DNA of 41,366 nt. Origin: an uncultured Candidatus Saccharibacteria bacterium (GTDB taxonomy: Bacteria; Patescibacteriota; Saccharimonadia; Saccharimonadales; Saccharimonadaceae). The translations under genes were made by a program, and so were the position numbers. The notes under the pieces are model-generated. The model was not told the DNA's origin and searched no databases. It worked only from the letters and a program-made list of their open reading frames with translations. This document shows positions 12,605 through 19,523 of the stretch, piece after piece. The stretch's first letter is position 1. Every line of letters starts with the position of its first letter. Location: positions 1-41,366 of the forward strand of contig CAMZHH010000006.1 in assembly GCA_947306745.1 (NCBI GenBank), written 5' to 3'.

Positions 12605-14605
12605 CTACGCCGCAGCGTCGAGATCTTCTACGTCTTCGTCTTCGTCGTCCAAGACTACATCTGGAGAATTATCATATCCATTCATAATATCTTCGTAGCT
12701 CGGGTTCTTGAAGCCGTCGGCTGGTCTCAATACAAAGTCAGGATGTGCTTCCTGGTAGTTATCAATTGATGCCTGGAAACCTGCTATCTCTAGTCTAGTC
12801 TTCGCAATAAATGCCTTGCGTTTCTCTACACTTGGCGCATTAATGCCGTCTGAACCGTTAGCAATAGATTGCTCTTGGTCGCGAATCCATTTCTCGCGCA
12901 TTCTGATATCGCCCAAATAACCACGCGTATGCAAATCGGCATTGATTCTATCCATGCGCGCATCCATTCTGCCGAACGTATCTACCTGGCCTTGTTCCTC
13001 GTCAGATAGCGACTCCGGTAAGCTGGATTCCGCTTTCTTCAACTCTTCTTCATAGTAATTCAAAGACTTAACTGAGGATTCAATTGTTGCGCGTAGGACG
13101 TTCTTACGTGCTCTCGCTTCAGACCACGGCAATGTAAAGAGTGGCATTCTGCGTAGCTCTTGGCGATGTTGCGCGATAATATCCTTCATGCGAGCGACTG
13201 AACGCTCCTTGCGCGCATAGTCTACGGTATTCTTTACGCCCTCACTGCACTTATCGAGCAGTTTACTCATAGCTTCCCAAACGCCACTTTGTTCTTGATA
13301 ACTCAAGATGGAATCCATTCTAGAATTGAGCTTCTCGGTCTCGTCCTCAAATGATTCCACGCCATCCTCGGCACGTTCGACCGCAATGCCATCTACCTCG
13401 CTCGTATCAACATTATACGTTTCTGCAGACACCGTATATTCATTCGTATTCGAAAATTCAGCCGCTGGAGGCATATCCATTGCTTGGCCAGCCATCGAGC
13501 CCTCAGTTTTATCGCCACCGCCAAGATCTTCACCGTCAGAGACTCCCTCCAAGCCATCTGGACCATCATTTCCGCCATTATATTCGTCAATTAAGCCCTG
13601 CAAGGCGTCAACATCCATTTCCTTCATTTGGCCACGGGTCAACTTCTTTACATTTTCGACCCATTCTGCCATCTTACCACCGCCAAGTTGCGCCAATAAA
13701 CCTTCTTTAACCTTTTCGGCATCTTCCTGGCTAGCTTCCGTTTCTACCGCTGGAGCTTCCTTGGTTGAAGCGCCCTCTTCTGTAGCTTCCTCAGTAGACT
13801 CTTCCGACTGTTCTACGACTTCTTCCGCAGATTCCTCTGACTGCTCCGCAGCTTCTTCAGAATCATTGTCCTCATCGCTTTCGGAGCTTTCGCTAGTTGT
13901 TTCATTAGATGTCTCAACTGGAGCTACCTCTTCAGATGCAGCTGCTTCTTCGGATGCAGTCGCCTCTTCGGTTGCAGCAGTCTCTTCGGTTGTCGCTTCC
14001 GCAGTCGCCTCTTCGGTTGTCGCTTCTGCAGTCGCCTCAGTAGTATCTTCTTCTTTTTGGTTCGACTCGGCCTCTACGCCAAAGATACGATGACCTTCCG
14101 AAGCTTCAATACGCTTGCCCCAGTCATTTGTATTTTCACCCTGCTGGCGTGGATATTTATGTAAGAGATCTTCTTTTTCTTGTTCTGTCATCTGGCTCCA
14201 ACGCGACTTCGTCGGATCATATTCGCGACCATCCTCAGATTCGGTTGCATCTTCAACCGCATCTTCAGCCGTAGCACCTTCGTAATGCTTATTTGGATTG
14301 CCGTCACGATCAGTCGGAAAATCTGGGTTAGCATTAGACTTCAACCAAGCCTCGTAAGAAAGGTCATCCTGAGTTGGATTTTCAATCTCACTCGTATCGA
14401 ATGGTGTAGTAACAATATCTGAATCGCCTTCTATTTCCGCTTCCGTATCTGGATTAGCATTAGACTTCAACCAAGCCTCGTAAGAAAGGTCATCCTGAGT
14501 TGGATTTTCAATCTCACTCGTATCGAATGGTGTTGCTAAAGAATCCCATTCGGTTTTGTTTTCGCTGTTTTTATTTTGGCCAGTATCTTGTTCTGCATTA
14601 GACAT
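12605..14605 (-). CDS. Long acidic repeat protein with coiled-coil C-terminus
   Basis: 666 residues, no signal peptide or membrane helix. The N-terminus has two near-identical copies of a unit containing PFDTSEIENPTQDDLSYEAW and LKSNANPD, 42 residues apart. Next is a low-complexity Glu/Ala/Thr tract (about 180-280; TEEATAEATTEE-type repeats), then a Gly/Asp-rich linker. A charged helical C-terminal half (about 385-640) includes KLNSRMDSILSYQEQSG and RKERSVARMKDIIAQHRQEL, and the protein ends in an Asp/Glu run. No enzyme motif seen. Could be a scaffold or cytoskeleton-like filler protein; function unknown. Leader about 27 nt with only a weak purine ribosome-binding site. Confidence 0.82.
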   Translation of the reverse strand: MSNAEQDTGQNKNSENKTEWDSLATPFDTSEIENPTQDDLSYEAWLKSNANPDTEAEIEGDSDIVTTPFDTSEIENPTQDDLSYEAWLKSNANPDFPTDRDGNPNKHYEGATAEDAVEDATESEDGREYDPTKSRWSQMTEQEKEDLLHKYPRQQGENTNDWGKRIEASEGHRIFGVEAESNQKEEDTTEATAEATTEEATAEATTEETAATEEATASEEAAASEEVAPVETSNETTSESSESDEDNDSEEAAEQSEESAEEVVEQSEESTEEATEEGASTKEAPAVETEASQEDAEKVKEGLLAQLGGGKMAEWVENVKKLTRGQMKEMDVDALQGLIDEYNGGNDGPDGLEGVSDGEDLGGGDKTEGSMAGQAMDMPPAAEFSNTNEYTVSAETYNVDTSEVDGIAVERAEDGVESFEDETEKLNSRMDSILSYQEQSGVWEAMSKLLDKCSEGVKNTVDYARKERSVARMKDIIAQHRQELRRMPLFTLPWSEARARKNVLRATIESSVKSLNYYEEELKKAESSLPESLSDEEQGQVDTFGRMDARMDRINADLHTRGYLGDIRMREKWIRDQEQSIANGSDGINAPSVEKRKAFIAKTRLEIAGFQASIDNYQEAHPDFVLRPADGFKNPSYEDIMNGYDNSPDVVLDDEDEDVEDLDAAA
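14321..14407 (-). repeat. 87-bp direct repeat, copy 1
   Basis: Matches 14447-14533 with one mismatch (14327 versus 14453). The period is 126 bp, a multiple of 3, so the reading frame is kept. Confidence 0.9.
14447..14533 (-). repeat. 87-bp direct repeat, copy 2
   Basis: Second copy of the 14321-14407 unit inside the acidic repeat protein. Near identity at DNA level suggests a recent duplication or gene conversion. Confidence 0.9.
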
Positions 14606-15262: not shown

Positions 15263-15338
15263 GGGGTGTTAGCTCAGTTGGTAGAGCGATTGGTTCGCAA
15301 TCAATAGGTCAGGAGTTCGAATCTCCTACACTCCACCA
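15263..15338 (+). tRNA. tRNA-Ala (CGC)
   Basis: Complete 76-nt cloverleaf. Acceptor GGGGTGT/ACACTCC with the G3-U70 pair that marks alanine tRNAs; anticodon arm ATTGG-TTCGCAA-TCAAT with anticodon CGC; T arm AGGAG-TTCGAAT-CTCCT; discriminator A and encoded CCA. Confidence 0.95.
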
Positions 15339-15360: not shown

Positions 15361-15393
15361 CCGTATTTATAAAATCCAAATACGGTCTTTTTT
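15361..15393. terminator. Terminator between tRNA-Ala and the pilus locus
   Basis: CCGTATTT/AAATACGG stem followed on the plus strand by TCTTTTTT. It lies directly after the stop of the detached anchor (15394), so it may serve both strands. Confidence 0.8.
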
Positions 15394-15492
15394 CTACAAT
15401 CTAATTCGAGCAAATTTTCGCTTCATTACCAAACTTACTACTAAGCCAGTTATAGATCCGATTATTACGAAATATGGTAATAGATTTTCATT
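15394..15492 (-). pseudogene. Detached membrane anchor of the second surface protein
   Basis: Not a gene by itself. In the frame of the 16183-17328 ORF, +1 from the 15488-16186 ORF, the minus strand reads NENLLPYFVIIGSITGLVV, then SLVMKRKFARIRL and a stop. This is a hydrophobic helix with a basic tail, as in sortase-type or simple C-terminal anchors. One base fewer in the AAA at 15491-15493 would join it to the upstream ORF, just after FLPISNQ. Either the gene is frameshifted or the sequence holds an error here. Confidence 0.65.
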
Positions 15493-16186
15493 TCTGATTA
15501 GAAATCGGCAAGAATTCGCCATTCGCATCTTTTACTTGCTGACGAATGTAAATTACTGGCGACAGCACAGTATTGTTATATCTCGTCGTGCCTGCCCAGT
15601 TCGCAATATTAATACTAAAATTCAAAGAATTACCAGCATTAATTACCTGCGTGCCCATATTCGTAAAGTCCAAGGTACCATTTTTTACGGCTTTTGTTGA
15701 AATTGTAGCAACACCAGTTGTATTTGCCGGATTATCTGTATCAAATAATTCTATTTGCGTTATGCCAGGCGTTTCATCAGTTAGAAGTCTACCCATATAA
15801 GCAAAACCTTCAGACCCCGTAGCGTCACGCTGAATCTGTGTACCAGCCGGAATTATACCAAAATCATACTCTAATTCATGAATATAGTCATTCGGCTCTA
15901 AACCTAATTCAACACCAGTAACAACGCCCGCATAACCATATTGGCTACAAGCTTTATTTATATTAGTATCCTTCGTTACACCATTCGCCGAAACTACGTG
16001 CACAACGCCAATCCTACTATTTGGCGAACAGCTCAGCTCTACCGCAAGCACGCCTAAAACATTGTTATCGAAAGTGAATCTGATCGTCTTGTCATTACTG
16101 TCGACACTACCTTTGTTATTGATATAACCAATGCCTAGTGAACCCTGCGAATACTTTTCGACTCTAGCCGTAGAGTTGTAGTTCAA
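15488..16186 (-). CDS. Surface protein, middle segment (probable frameshifted part)
   Basis: 232 residues from a TTG that overlaps the previous ORF's TGA (TTGA). No signal peptide. The content is typical of extracellular beta domains (NKGSVDSNDKTIRFTFDNN, NSLNFSINIANWAG). It ends GEFLPISNQK and stop, with no anchor, although an anchor is encoded just beyond in another frame. Most likely this is the middle of one gene that also includes 16183-17328 and 15394-15492. FLPISN resembles the xPx[ST]N signals (such as NPQTN) used by class B sortases, an inference. A separate, translationally coupled gene is less likely. Confidence 0.6.
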   Translation of the reverse strand: MNYNSTARVEKYSQGSLGIGYINNKGSVDSNDKTIRFTFDNNVLGVLAVELSCSPNSRIGVVHVVSANGVTKDTNINKACSQYGYAGVVTGVELGLEPNDYIHELEYDFGIIPAGTQIQRDATGSEGFAYMGRLLTDETPGITQIELFDTDNPANTTGVATISTKAVKNGTLDFTNMGTQVINAGNSLNFSINIANWAGTTRYNNTVLSPVIYIRQQVKDANGEFLPISNQK

Positions 16187-17328
16187 ATTATGCGCAGCTC
16201 AGTATCGTTCGGGTCCATGCTATTCCAGTTAAGCGTAACCGCTTCGCCGGACGGCAATACTTCAAAGCTTATAGTCTGCGTATTAATAAAATTAACTACA
16301 ACATCCTCGCCACTATCATCCCAATAGGTCGTCACACCATTACTTTTTACTTGATAGATTTTTCCATCTTCAGCGTCTTCTGGTATTACTATCGCATACG
16401 GAACCGCGCCGTCGCCGTTAGCACTAGCCGCAAATGTTCTTGTAATTACATAATTACCATTCGCAGCATCGCTATCGTCAATCGACCATGTAGCATCTGC
16501 ACCTTGAAGCACAATTTTTGCCGCCGGATCATCGACCGACATATAGTAAGTTACGTTTTTAATTAAACGTTTTACATCATACTCACCGAATACGATATTT
16601 CCTCTCACTAGACGATAATACCCCTCGTACGATTGATGCGTCACGCCTGGTTTTACATATACTTTACGACTCGTAACGTAGAATTTACCGCCTGTACTTT
16701 TACCATCTGGCACGCTTACATCGACGCTAGCTGTTTCTATCTCAGAGTTATTTACCATCAACTTTACTAACAATGCATCTTCAATGTAATCAGTATTAAT
16801 AATTGAATCGGCTTTTACAATGATACTAATCGATAATGCCGACGCGCCATCAACTAAGTGATAAATCCTAGTGCCAGAATTCTTAAAGTCATAGCCTAAT
16901 ACTTTTTCGTGATCGAGAGCTACAGTTTCGACGCCGCCAGAACGACTCGTATCTATTTGCGCGGAAAGATTCTGATCGGACGATCCGTCATCAACCCACG
17001 ACATTCCAACTGGCAATTTAACAACCAAATCTTTCGTGCCACTCGGTAAATTTCTCAAAGAGATTTTTGCATTATATATATTCGAATCAGCACTATTACT
17101 ACCGACGCGAGTATAACTAAAATTCGCTACAGCATCATCAATTCCCTGCGAAAAATCCACCAAGCCATTATCGTCCGTGATAGTAGCCGTCATATATACA
17201 GCAGCTGCACGCGAATTATGCAAATTAATCACATTCGCCACGATAATTGTGGTCATCAGCAAAGTCAAAAGAAAACCAAAAATTAAAACAAAGCGTTTCC
17301 TATCGATTCTTCGGCGAATTGTTTTCAT
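16183..17328 (-). CDS. Secreted surface protein, N-terminal segment (candidate accessory/tip pilin)
   Basis: 381 residues. A basic N-terminus (MKTIRRRIDRKR) and hydrophobic core (about 13-35) form a signal peptide or anchor with likely cleavage near NSRAAAVY. The rest is beta-rich extracellular sequence (NIYNAKISLRNLPSGTKDLV, KFYVTSRKVYVKPGVTHQ). It stops after DPNDTELRII with no anchor; the next ORF continues in the -1 frame. Own promoter (17382-17387), GGAGG ribosome-binding site. Its position beside a pilin, a SipA homologue and a class B sortase suggests an accessory or tip subunit like Cpa, but no Cpa thioester motif is recognised. Confidence 0.7.
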   Translation of the reverse strand: MKTIRRRIDRKRFVLIFGFLLTLLMTTIIVANVINLHNSRAAAVYMTATITDDNGLVDFSQGIDDAVANFSYTRVGSNSADSNIYNAKISLRNLPSGTKDLVVKLPVGMSWVDDGSSDQNLSAQIDTSRSGGVETVALDHEKVLGYDFKNSGTRIYHLVDGASALSISIIVKADSIINTDYIEDALLVKLMVNNSEIETASVDVSVPDGKSTGGKFYVTSRKVYVKPGVTHQSYEGYYRLVRGNIVFGEYDVKRLIKNVTYYMSVDDPAAKIVLQGADATWSIDDSDAANGNYVITRTFAASANGDGAVPYAIVIPEDAEDGKIYQVKSNGVTTYWDDSGEDVVVNFINTQTISFEVLPSGEAVTLNWNSMDPNDTELRII

Positions 17329-17438: not shown

Positions 17439-18131
17439 TTATAGCCCTATCAACATCAACAGCACGTCGCGCTTCCCACGATCTTGCGCATCGCAAGTGG
17501 ACAATAATAAATATCTATCTCCTTCAATATTATTTCTATATTTTGCTTCTTTAAAAATTAAATCGACGGTAGAAATATTATTCTTACTATGCTCGACATC
17601 GTATACTTTTTGCTCAACTGCGGATATTAGCGCAAATGCTACAGTACGCAACTGATATTTGCTATCGCCAACATATAATTCACCTCCAGTATGCGCGTCG
17701 AAATAATTACGATCCGAAAATTTCGTTACGTCTGAAAACATTTTTCCATATCCCATTCGATGTCCATAAAGCACAGAGAATAAGTCACTAAAATCAGCCG
17801 CATTTCGATAATCTAAAAAGACGCTCCCCGCTGTCGCCCATTCTTTTTTATAATTTCTGGCCAAATAGTAATCATTATCCCCACCCTGCAAAATGGGATA
17901 ATTAATCCCCGTACCATCAACTCGAATCCATCCAATTACATCCTCATTTATCGTTTTTAATGCTTTAAAATCCAATTCTTTGTTATTATTTTCTGGTGCT
18001 AATTTTTCAATTTCCCGCGGTAAATCTGCACTATGCACAACAATCTGCGCATCCGTTAACAAATAACAGCAAATTATCACAATAAACAACGCCATTATTA
18101 CCGCAATCATTTCTCCAATTCGTAATAGCAA
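17439..18131 (-). CDS. Class B sortase
   Basis: About 230 residues from TTG 18131. The frame is open to ATG 18236, but that would overlap sipA by 88 bp in Trp/Arg-rich, out-of-frame text, so the shorter start is preferred; the choice is uncertain. N-terminal membrane anchor (RIGEMIAVIMALFIVIICCY), then a sortase domain: catalytic His in VLYGHRMGYGK (H124), Cys in LLLSTCDAQDRGKRDV (C213) with the following Arg. GWIRVDGTGINYPILQG and NYYL-type text before it are class B features. In streptococcal FCT islands a class B sortase (SrtC2/SrtB) polymerises FctA pilin with help from SipA, and all three are found here. Confidence 0.88.
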   Translation of the reverse strand: MLLRIGEMIAVIMALFIVIICCYLLTDAQIVVHSADLPREIEKLAPENNNKELDFKALKTINEDVIGWIRVDGTGINYPILQGGDNDYYLARNYKKEWATAGSVFLDYRNAADFSDLFSVLYGHRMGYGKMFSDVTKFSDRNYFDAHTGGELYVGDSKYQLRTVAFALISAVEQKVYDVEHSKNNISTVDLIFKEAKYRNNIEGDRYLLLSTCDAQDRGKRDVLLMLIGL

Positions 18132-18148
18132 TCGAATTCCCAGATAGC

Positions 18149-18436
18149 TTAAATCTCGCGCCCCCGCCAAAGCAGAACGGCGCGACCAATGATATCCTGT
18201 TCCCCATTGAAACGTCCTACTTCGCCATTCTTCCATATCACCACGTCCTCCAAATTCGGCGCGAATAATCTTTCATAAAATACCAAATCACCATCACGCA
18301 AATCTGGCGCAAGCTGATTATTATTTATTCTTTTTACACCCATAGCCATACAAATAGCTAAGATACACATACTAACTATCAGCGCACGCCAGCCCAAACG
18401 CCACCACCGATATCCATATTTCCTGTTAATTTTCAT
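18149..18436 (-). CDS. SipA-like signal peptidase homologue without catalytic residues
   Basis: 95 residues from ATG 18436, which overlaps the pilin stop by 11 bp. The frame opens upstream at 18469, inside the pilin gene. One membrane segment (about 18-34) is followed by a signal-peptidase I core, QLAPDLRDGDLVFYERLF and QDIIGRAVLLW. Aligned by eye to SMxPTLxxGD and YIKRV, the catalytic Ser is Gln41 and the Lys is Gly84. Loss of both also marks SipA of streptococcal FctA pilus islands, where it acts as an assembly factor rather than a peptidase. The protein is short, ending soon after the Lys-equivalent region. Confidence 0.8.
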   Translation of the reverse strand: MKINRKYGYRWWRLGWRALIVSMCILAICMAMGVKRINNNQLAPDLRDGDLVFYERLFAPNLEDVVIWKNGEVGRFNGEQDIIGRAVLLWRGREI

Positions 18437-19523
18437 TAACTTTTGCAGAAGCGACTTTGCGAATTGCAAATATGCCAGCTATACAAATTCCTGCCAATAC
18501 CATAAATGGCCAACCCTTTGTAACAATACCAGTTAAGACACTAGCTTCTTTTTTGTTTACGAAGTTTACTTGGTTGTTATCGCTTAACGACTCCGGAGTA
18601 CTTATATTCGCCGTCTCCAGTACTGTCCCATTATTCGTATTCGTTTCTACATCATTAATCCATGCAGTATAGCCATCGTACAAATCTTCAACTACCGTAA
18701 ACGTTGCGCCAACCGGAATTTCCATTTCGTCCCCATTCGCGCCAATTAATGCAGTTTGTCCATGTTTTAAGTAAATATAATTATCATTACCAACTGTAAA
18801 CTGCGATAAAGTTTGAATGGTCTCACCGTTGTATTCTATACTTTCATCCTGACCAGAAATCGTAAACACATCACCATCACTTGCGCCATCAACAGTTACA
18901 CGAAACTTAAAATATTGATCTCTACGAGCTAAATTGCCTTCGACATTCTTCGTAATCTTCGCATATGTTAATACAGCTTCACTAGTGAACAATACGTCGC
19001 CTTTATCGCCGGTACCATTTTTCTTCGCCTGAAGCGACAAAGTCGGAATTAGTTTACCTGTCGGCGCGCCATTAGCATCCAACTCATTACGTACAGATAC
19101 GTAAATATGATATTTCGTCGAATCTATCGGATACGCACTAGCATTCGTACTGCCAGTTTCCGAAAGAATAAAAGTATAATCGCCTACTTCCGTGAAACCA
19201 ACGCCGCTTAGATCTAAGTAATTATTCGCAGCCGCATAGCCATCGAATGCAAAAGCATGATCGAATCTTACATAAATATCATCCGGCAATCCAGTTACTG
19301 TGGCGGGATTATCTGATGCTTCCTCGATTCCATAAGTAAAAGTATTTGTTACTTGATTCTTTAATCCCGTCAGACTGCGCTGAATCGTAATCGTTTGCGG
19401 ACTATCCGAATTGCTAGAAAGCGTTACTGGCGCTTCAATTGCACTTGCCATCCCGCCACCGCTCAAGAATGTTATCAATATTGTCGAAAATGTCAAAAAA
19501 CTCTCACGAATTTTACTTCGCAT
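18426..19523 (-). CDS. FctA/Spy0128-like sortase-dependent major pilin
   Basis: 365 residues. Signal peptide with likely cut after GMASA (residue 28). Two Ig-like domains follow, then the cell-wall sorting region NQVNFVNKKEASVLTGIVTK, a membrane helix (WPFMVLAGICIAGIFAI) and a basic tail. The C-domain has the isopeptide set Lys192 (YAKITKNVEGN), Glu279 (FTVVED) and Asn323 (NFVNKK). The N-domain keeps the Glu (YTFILSETG, E132), but its expected Lys and Asn positions look changed (R49/L185), so it may lack the bond. The TG of VLTG is the presumed sortase cleavage site. AAGGAGG lies just before ATG 19523. First gene of pilin-sipA-sortase. Confidence 0.85.
   Translation of the reverse strand: MRSKIRESFLTFSTILITFLSGGGMASAIEAPVTLSSNSDSPQTITIQRSLTGLKNQVTNTFTYGIEEASDNPATVTGLPDDIYVRFDHAFAFDGYAAANNYLDLSGVGFTEVGDYTFILSETGSTNASAYPIDSTKYHIYVSVRNELDANGAPTGKLIPTLSLQAKKNGTGDKGDVLFTSEAVLTYAKITKNVEGNLARRDQYFKFRVTVDGASDGDVFTISGQDESIEYNGETIQTLSQFTVGNDNYIYLKHGQTALIGANGDEMEIPVGATFTVVEDLYDGYTAWINDVETNTNNGTVLETANISTPESLSDNNQVNFVNKKEASVLTGIVTKGWPFMVLAGICIAGIFAIRKVASAKVNEN

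What the first reader, a model, noticed from the sequence alone, without database searches (positions are those of the whole stretch)
15394..17328. Surface protein split by two opposite frameshifts, with a stranded membrane anchor
ORF 16183-17328 has the signal peptide. ORF 15488-16186 (-1 frame, TTGA overlap) has more extracellular sequence. A membrane anchor with basic tail lies in the first frame right after the second stop. One T more near 16184-16186 and one A fewer near 15491-15493 would give a single ~645-residue anchored protein. This could be decay, phase variation, ribosomal frameshifting or sequence error. The runs are only 3 nt long, so a homopolymer error is not an obvious cause.
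Basis: partly seen in the sequence, partly recalled or inferred. Interest (0 to 1): 0.6.

Follow-up and report, generated by a model that had tools for sequence, protein, structure and literature searches.

The report
Broken giant adhesin gene, mostly deleted
In this small gut Saccharibacterium the gene for a very large surface adhesin has been broken by one frameshift and by the loss of about two thousand or more bases from its middle, leaving a membrane-anchor stub out of frame; this is ordinary gene decay next to an intact pilus-type gene cluster, not a new decoding trick.

Summary
The frames, the TTGA overlap and the stranded membrane anchor are all present as described. In eight intact relatives (seven congeneric genomes and a sheep-gut Saccharibacterium) the homologue is one uninterrupted 1,320-1,584-residue surface protein. 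ORF 16183-17328 matches its residues ~1-375 and ORF 15488-16186 its residues ~376-612, end to end. After that the window lacks a further 683-925 residues: all Cna_B/SdrD_B-like and MucBP domains and the NPxTxD-type sorting motif. It resumes only at the C-terminal membrane helix and basic tail. So there is one frameshift (both frames open together for only 13 nt) and one internal deletion of ~2.0-2.8 kb whose ends happen to lie out of frame. The lost part is nowhere else in the assembly. Best reading: a recent pseudogene of an accessory, sortase-anchored mucin-binding-type adhesin, beside an intact pilin/SipA-like/class-B sortase cluster. Programmed frameshifting is contradicted by the in-frame homologues. 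A base-calling error cannot explain the missing kilobases, although assembly error is not fully excluded without reads. In passing: related pilin and sortase genes carry a conserved in-frame UGA apparently read as sense, which deserves its own study.

The parts
16183..17328 (-). ORF1: N-terminal fragment of the adhesin (signal/TM segment plus extracellular sequence); start preceded by a GGAGGA ribosome-binding sequence
   Evidence: about 36-49% identical to residues 1-~375 of 1,320-1,584-aa proteins
15488..16198 (-). ORF2: next fragment of the same protein, -1 frame relative to ORF1; no signal peptide and no clear ribosome-binding site of its own
   Evidence: 40-56% identical to residues ~376-612 of the same homologues
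16183..16201 (-). Frameshift interval: both frames open together only at 16186-16198, bounded by TGA on each side; no run longer than 3 nt
   Evidence: homologues continuous in one frame here (alignment)
15489..15499 (-). Deletion junction: homology to the N-terminal part stops after 'LPISN', homology to the C-terminal anchor begins; 683-925 residues (2.0-2.8 kb) missing relative to homologues, including Cna_B/SdrD_B-like and MucBP domains and the NPxTxD-type motif
15394..15489 (-). Stranded C-terminal membrane anchor and basic tail of the adhesin, in ORF1's frame, without a sorting motif, ending in TAG
15361..15385 (-). Intrinsic-terminator-like hairpin after the remnant gene
17439..18236 (-). 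Class B sortase, intact
   Evidence: TIGR03064 169.8 bits, cut-off 153.75; PF04203 over cut-off
18149..18469 (-). Short signal-peptidase-like (SipA-like) protein, 106 aa; residues NNQLAPDLRDGD where active signal peptidases have Ser
   Evidence: weak TIGR02227 match, 18.2 bits, cut-off 47; sequence inspection
18426..19523 (-). Pilin-like surface protein with an isopeptide-type domain and C-terminal VLTG-TM-tail
   Evidence: PF24547 46.3 bits, over cut-off; PF12892 (FctA) 20 bits, just below cut-off; homologues in 42 of 45 genomes

Best explanation
The locus is a recently inactivated gene (pseudogene) for a large sortase-anchored adhesin. Shown by comparison: intact relatives make one protein with a signal peptide, ~900 residues of largely unclassified extracellular sequence, a Cna_B/SdrD_B-like domain (in most), a MucBP domain, an NPxTxD-type motif (APVTMD in one; the sheep-gut form ends differently) and a membrane anchor; the window copy has a frameshift at ~residue 375 and lacks everything from ~residue 612 to just past the sorting motif. 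Inferred: what can still be translated is the ORF1 product, a 381-residue N-terminal fragment that may be exported but has neither sorting motif nor C-terminal anchor, so it could not be attached by the neighbouring class B sortase and is probably non-functional. The pilin and sortase genes beside it are intact, so the pilus could still be built without this adhesin.
For: ORF1 and ORF2 map to consecutive stretches of single-ORF proteins in all seven congeners with a full-length copy and in a sheep-gut Saccharibacterium, no stops inside; an eighth congener (G012) has a contig-truncated copy, also without stops. Homology ends at 'LPISN' and resumes at the C-terminal TM; 683-925 residues missing. 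tblastn of full-length homologues against the window finds only the two N-terminal blocks plus chance-level matches elsewhere, and a search of the whole assembly with the missing part finds only a 36%-identical stretch of a different intact 1,575-aa surface protein on contig 31. Domain content of the lost part: MucBP in all five family members scanned, SdrD_B or Cna_B in four of the five. In G017 an intact copy sits in the same order, pilin-sortase-adhesin, with the same tRNA-Ala(CGC) 1.3 kb beyond it. No further stops in 617 codons, giving less than ~0.044 neutral substitutions per site since inactivation (95%), i.e. recent. Branch length of the window copy is not unusual (0.46; others 0.27-0.58).
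Against: Only one assembly of this species is held; no reads were available. Amino-acid conservation of both pieces is still good: departures at columns invariant in the others are 13/92 for the window, 5/84 and 7/86 in its nearest relatives, 13/92 in the sheep copy. So either decay is very recent or a fragment is still used.
Confidence: 0.8

Rival explanations
1. Assembly artefact: the organism has an intact ~1,500-codon gene and the metagenome assembly skipped the middle and introduced an indel.
For: Metagenome-type draft assembly in 36 contigs; two defects in one gene; large repetitive-type surface genes are prone to misassembly.
Against: No long shared sequence that would drive a wrong join: longest exact matches between the 2.5-kb region and three other stretches of the assembly are 12-14 nt, and 11 nt between the junction and the rest of the window. 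The missing segment is on no other contig. Nine of ten other window genes tested match their families as single frames, and the paralogous 1,575-aa surface gene is intact. The frameshift interval has no homopolymer longer than 3.
Confidence: 0.13
2. Programmed ribosomal frameshifting or translational coupling joins ORF1, ORF2 and the anchor into a functional short anchored protein.
For: TTGA stop-start overlap; both frames well conserved in sequence; anchor retained.
Against: All homologues are in one frame across the first site; no slippery heptamer in the 13-nt overlap; no clear ribosome-binding site before the TTG; the second site is a deletion scar, not a shift site; the sorting motif is missing; reading TGA as sense does not restore the frame.
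Confidence: 0.03
3. Deletion-based phase or antigenic variation: the missing 2.0-2.8 kb is lost and regained in the population, switching the adhesin off.
For: Surface adhesins often vary; the deletion removes almost exactly the segment from mid-ectodomain to the sorting motif; the adhesin is accessory (9 of 45 congeneric genomes).
Against: No donor cassette elsewhere in the assembly; no repeat detected at the junction; a second independent lesion (frameshift) is present; no tandem-repeat or homopolymer switch.
Confidence: 0.04

Closest known systems
Intact orthologous adhesins of the same genus (e.g. G019 1,564 aa, G067 1,570 aa, G017 1,566 aa; no curated family covers residues 1-~900)
   Same: Signal segment, residues 1-612 at 39-49% identity, C-terminal TM and basic tail; in G017 the same place between the sortase and the tRNA-Ala
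   Different: Intact copies are one frame and keep the Cna_B/SdrD_B-like and MucBP domains and (all but the sheep-gut copy) an NPxTxD-type motif; the window copy has lost them
Group A Streptococcus FCT pilus region (tip adhesin Cpa, SipA, pilin FctA, sortase; PMC4049620)
   Same: Adjacent genes for a Spy0128/FctA-like pilin, a short signal-peptidase-like protein without the catalytic Ser, and a class B sortase; a large surface protein beside them
   Different: The pilin matches PF12892 just below cut-off; the SipA-like match is weak; gene order differs from GAS; the window adhesin is broken and has no family hit that would link it to Cpa

Membership tests
Pseudogene of the long Saccharibacteria adhesin family | Intact orthologues exist with one uninterrupted frame | tested here: met
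Pseudogene of the long Saccharibacteria adhesin family | Frame broken and essential parts missing | tested here: met
Pseudogene of the long Saccharibacteria adhesin family | Relaxed selection on what remains | tested here: inconclusive
   13/92 departures at invariant columns versus 5/84 and 7/86 in nearest relatives; no extra stops
Pseudogene of the long Saccharibacteria adhesin family | No functional product in the cell | not testable with these tools
   needs proteomics
Sortase-anchored surface protein | Sorting motif followed by TM and basic tail | tested here: not met
   motif lost in the window copy; NPxTxD-type motif present in the congeneric homologues (APVTMD in G033)
Class B sortase (neighbour 17439-18236) | TIGR03064 over curated cut-off | tested here: met
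   169.8 bits against 153.75
FctA/Spy0128 pilin (neighbour 18426-19523) | PF12892 over curated cut-off | tested here: not met
   20.0 bits against 22.1; DUF7601 (PF24547) passes
SipA pilus-assembly protein (neighbour 18149-18469) | Signal-peptidase fold without catalytic Ser/Lys | tested here: inconclusive
   weak signal peptidase I match; no Ser at the expected place by inspection; fold not modelled
Programmed ribosomal frameshift gene | Frame break conserved among homologues | tested here: not met
   all homologues single frame

The most novel reading that the evidence does not exclude
The adhesin is switched off reversibly or in a subpopulation by excision of its middle and anchoring segment, leaving an exported N-terminal fragment that acts as a soluble binder.
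Probability: 0.05. Interest if true: 0.5.

Novelty: new member of a known kind. Interest (0 to 1): 0.2.

Why it matters
It corrects a tempting frameshift story: comparing relatives shows a multi-kilobase deletion where the sequence alone suggested a one-base slip. It also brings to light a family of ~1,500-residue mucin-binding-type adhesins, for which no description was found in the held library, near class-B-sortase pilus clusters in a genus of gut Saccharibacteria: an accessory trait that is gained and lost. These are plausible attachment factors for episymbionts whose attachment is poorly understood.

Tried and rejected
Recoding of TGA as sense in the split gene: ORF1 read through runs only 15 more codons, and ORF2 reads a non-hydrophobic frame. 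Genome-wide UGA reassignment: prfB passes the cut-off in 42 of 45 genomes, including this one, and TGA ends normal genes. The missing middle elsewhere in the assembly: only a paralogous C-terminal region at 36% identity. Repeat-mediated misjoin: no shared exact stretch over 14 nt in the sequence compared. AlphaFold models of ORF1 and ORF2 with a two-sequence alignment gave pLDDT 46 and 53, too poor for a fold search. Pfam and NCBIfam give nothing for either fragment. A pattern search for a Trp suppressor tRNA with UCA anticodon gave only chance-like matches.

Full report
WHAT IS THERE. The window is contig 6 of a 935-kb, 36-contig Saccharibacteria-type assembly (the only named relative found is a sheep-jejunum Candidatus Saccharibacteria genome). 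On the minus strand, ORF1 (16183-17328, 381 aa) begins after a good ribosome-binding sequence and has an N-terminal membrane/signal segment. ORF2 (15488-16186, 232 aa from TTG) lies one frame back with a TTGA overlap. A hydrophobic segment with a basic tail follows in ORF1's frame and ends at 15394.

WHAT IT WAS. ORF1 and ORF2 were searched against relatives. In the 45 genomes of the genus, 9 including this one carry the gene. All homologous matches lie in one uninterrupted frame with no stops, 1,320-1,584 residues in the complete copies. tblastn of eight complete homologues against the window gives two adjacent blocks, residues 1-~375 and ~376-612, and beyond those only chance-level matches. 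The homologues continue for a further ~700-970 residues with Cna_B/SdrD_B-like and MucBP domains and, in the congeners, an NPxTxD-type motif (APVTMD in G033), then a membrane helix and basic tail. The window's anchor resembles that last helix and tail (ENLLPYFVIIG... versus DNNLAIYFILSG... in G067), beginning right after the motif.

TWO LESIONS OF DIFFERENT KIND. (1) A frameshift at about residue 375. Both frames are open together only over 13 nt (16186-16198), so the lesion is tightly placed; homologues are continuous there. (2) An internal deletion. The last homologous residues are 'LPISN', and the next homologous ones are the transmembrane segment. 683-925 residues (2,049-2,775 nt) are missing, depending on the homologue. 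That the anchor is out of frame is a by-product of the deletion. The proposed 645-residue protein is therefore not the ancestor.

REAL OR ARTEFACT. The missing part is not elsewhere in the assembly; the only match is a 36%-identical stretch of a different, intact 1,575-aa surface protein on contig 31. The longest exact matches that might have driven a misjoin are 11-14 nt, in the window and three other fetched stretches. Of ten other genes in the window, nine match their families as single frames (the tenth, a glycosyltransferase-like gene, has no family in that library but is one 540-codon frame). A base-calling error could give lesion 1 but not lesion 2. Without reads, a misassembly cannot be fully excluded.

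AGE AND SELECTION. The two fragments have no additional stop in 617 codons, which limits neutral divergence since inactivation to about 0.044 substitutions per site. The branch leading to the window copy is of ordinary length, and departures at otherwise invariant columns are only mildly raised (13/92 versus 5/84 and 7/86 in the nearest relatives). The loss is recent, or a fragment retains some use.

SETTING. Upstream on the same strand lie an intact class B sortase, a short signal-peptidase-like protein, and a pilin-like protein with an isopeptide-type domain. This resembles the pilus region of group A Streptococcus, where a SipA without catalytic residues is needed for pilus polymerisation (PMC4049620). 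Pilin and sortase homologues occur in 42 and 43 of 45 genomes of the genus (the weakest sortase matches may be other sortases), whereas the adhesin occurs in 9. The cluster often lies near a tRNA-Ala(CGC): found within a few kilobases downstream of the sortase in G031, G007, G009, G061, G066 and G020, with no adhesin match in the stretches examined, and in G017 with the intact adhesin between sortase and tRNA. The adhesin is thus an accessory gene of a conserved pilus locus. Sortases are known to be common in CPR bacteria (PMC6744442); no paper describing this adhesin family was found in the held library.

MECHANISM. Shown: the gene is broken and lacks its sorting motif and mucin-binding-type domain. 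Inferred: translation from the ORF1 start gives a 381-residue fragment that cannot be attached by the sortase, so the adhesin function is lost while the pilus cluster stays intact.

A SIDE OBSERVATION. In eight congeners the pilin homologue has an in-frame TGA at one and the same column shortly after the signal peptide, and the sortases of these genomes (in G001 a second copy of the locus) have a TGA at one of two Trp positions. G019 and G007 have TGA at the first site and TGG at the second; G020, G031, G001, G005, G026 and G067 the reverse. Sequence downstream of the pilin TGA is under strong purifying selection (dN/dS 0.06-0.15 among three close genomes). Release factor 2 is present in the genus and TGA ends ordinary genes, so this looks like local UGA readthrough. 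The window's own pilin and sortase have no such TGA.

Noticed in passing
Pilin homologues in L051 (G020), L052 (G031), L053 (G001), L055 (G005), L056 (G026), L057 (G067), L058 (G007), L059 (G019): An in-frame TGA at the same alignment column just after the signal peptide in eight congeneric genomes, always followed by A; downstream sequence under strong purifying selection (dN/dS 0.06-0.15 among three close genomes) although RF2 is present in the genus and TGA is used as a normal stop elsewhere. Suggests programmed UGA readthrough gating pilin synthesis.
   Followed up: partly
Class B sortases of the same genomes: L051, L052, L054, L055, L056, L057, L058, L059: Each has a TGA at one of two Trp positions, with TGG at the other in G019 and G007 and a Trp at the first site in the rest: 'A-TGA-L' in G019 and G007, 'D/E-TGA-x-[IV]YN' in the others; G067 has one more TGA near its N-terminus. 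Supports Trp as the inserted residue. No UCA-anticodon tRNA was found with one simple pattern.
   Followed up: partly
window 15263-15338 and L093-L096, L101, L102, L011: The pilin-sortase cluster lies near a tRNA-Ala(CGC) in many congeners, with different cargo between sortase and tRNA (nothing, the adhesin, or homologues of the 12605-14605 protein): a variable slot for accessory genes.
   Followed up: partly
L030 (G000 contig 31) 555-5300: A second, intact 1,575-aa surface protein with SdrD_B, SpaA and MucBP domains, ending in NPNTAD-TM-tail, in the same genome.
   Followed up: no
window 12605-14605 (-): A 666-aa protein with an exact repeat of 'TTPFDTSEIENPTQDDLSYEAWLKSNANPD' (first copy 'ATPFDT...') near its start, an acidic Ala/Thr/Glu-rich stretch and a conserved C-terminal part found in congeners (46% identity); no Pfam family.
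   Followed up: no
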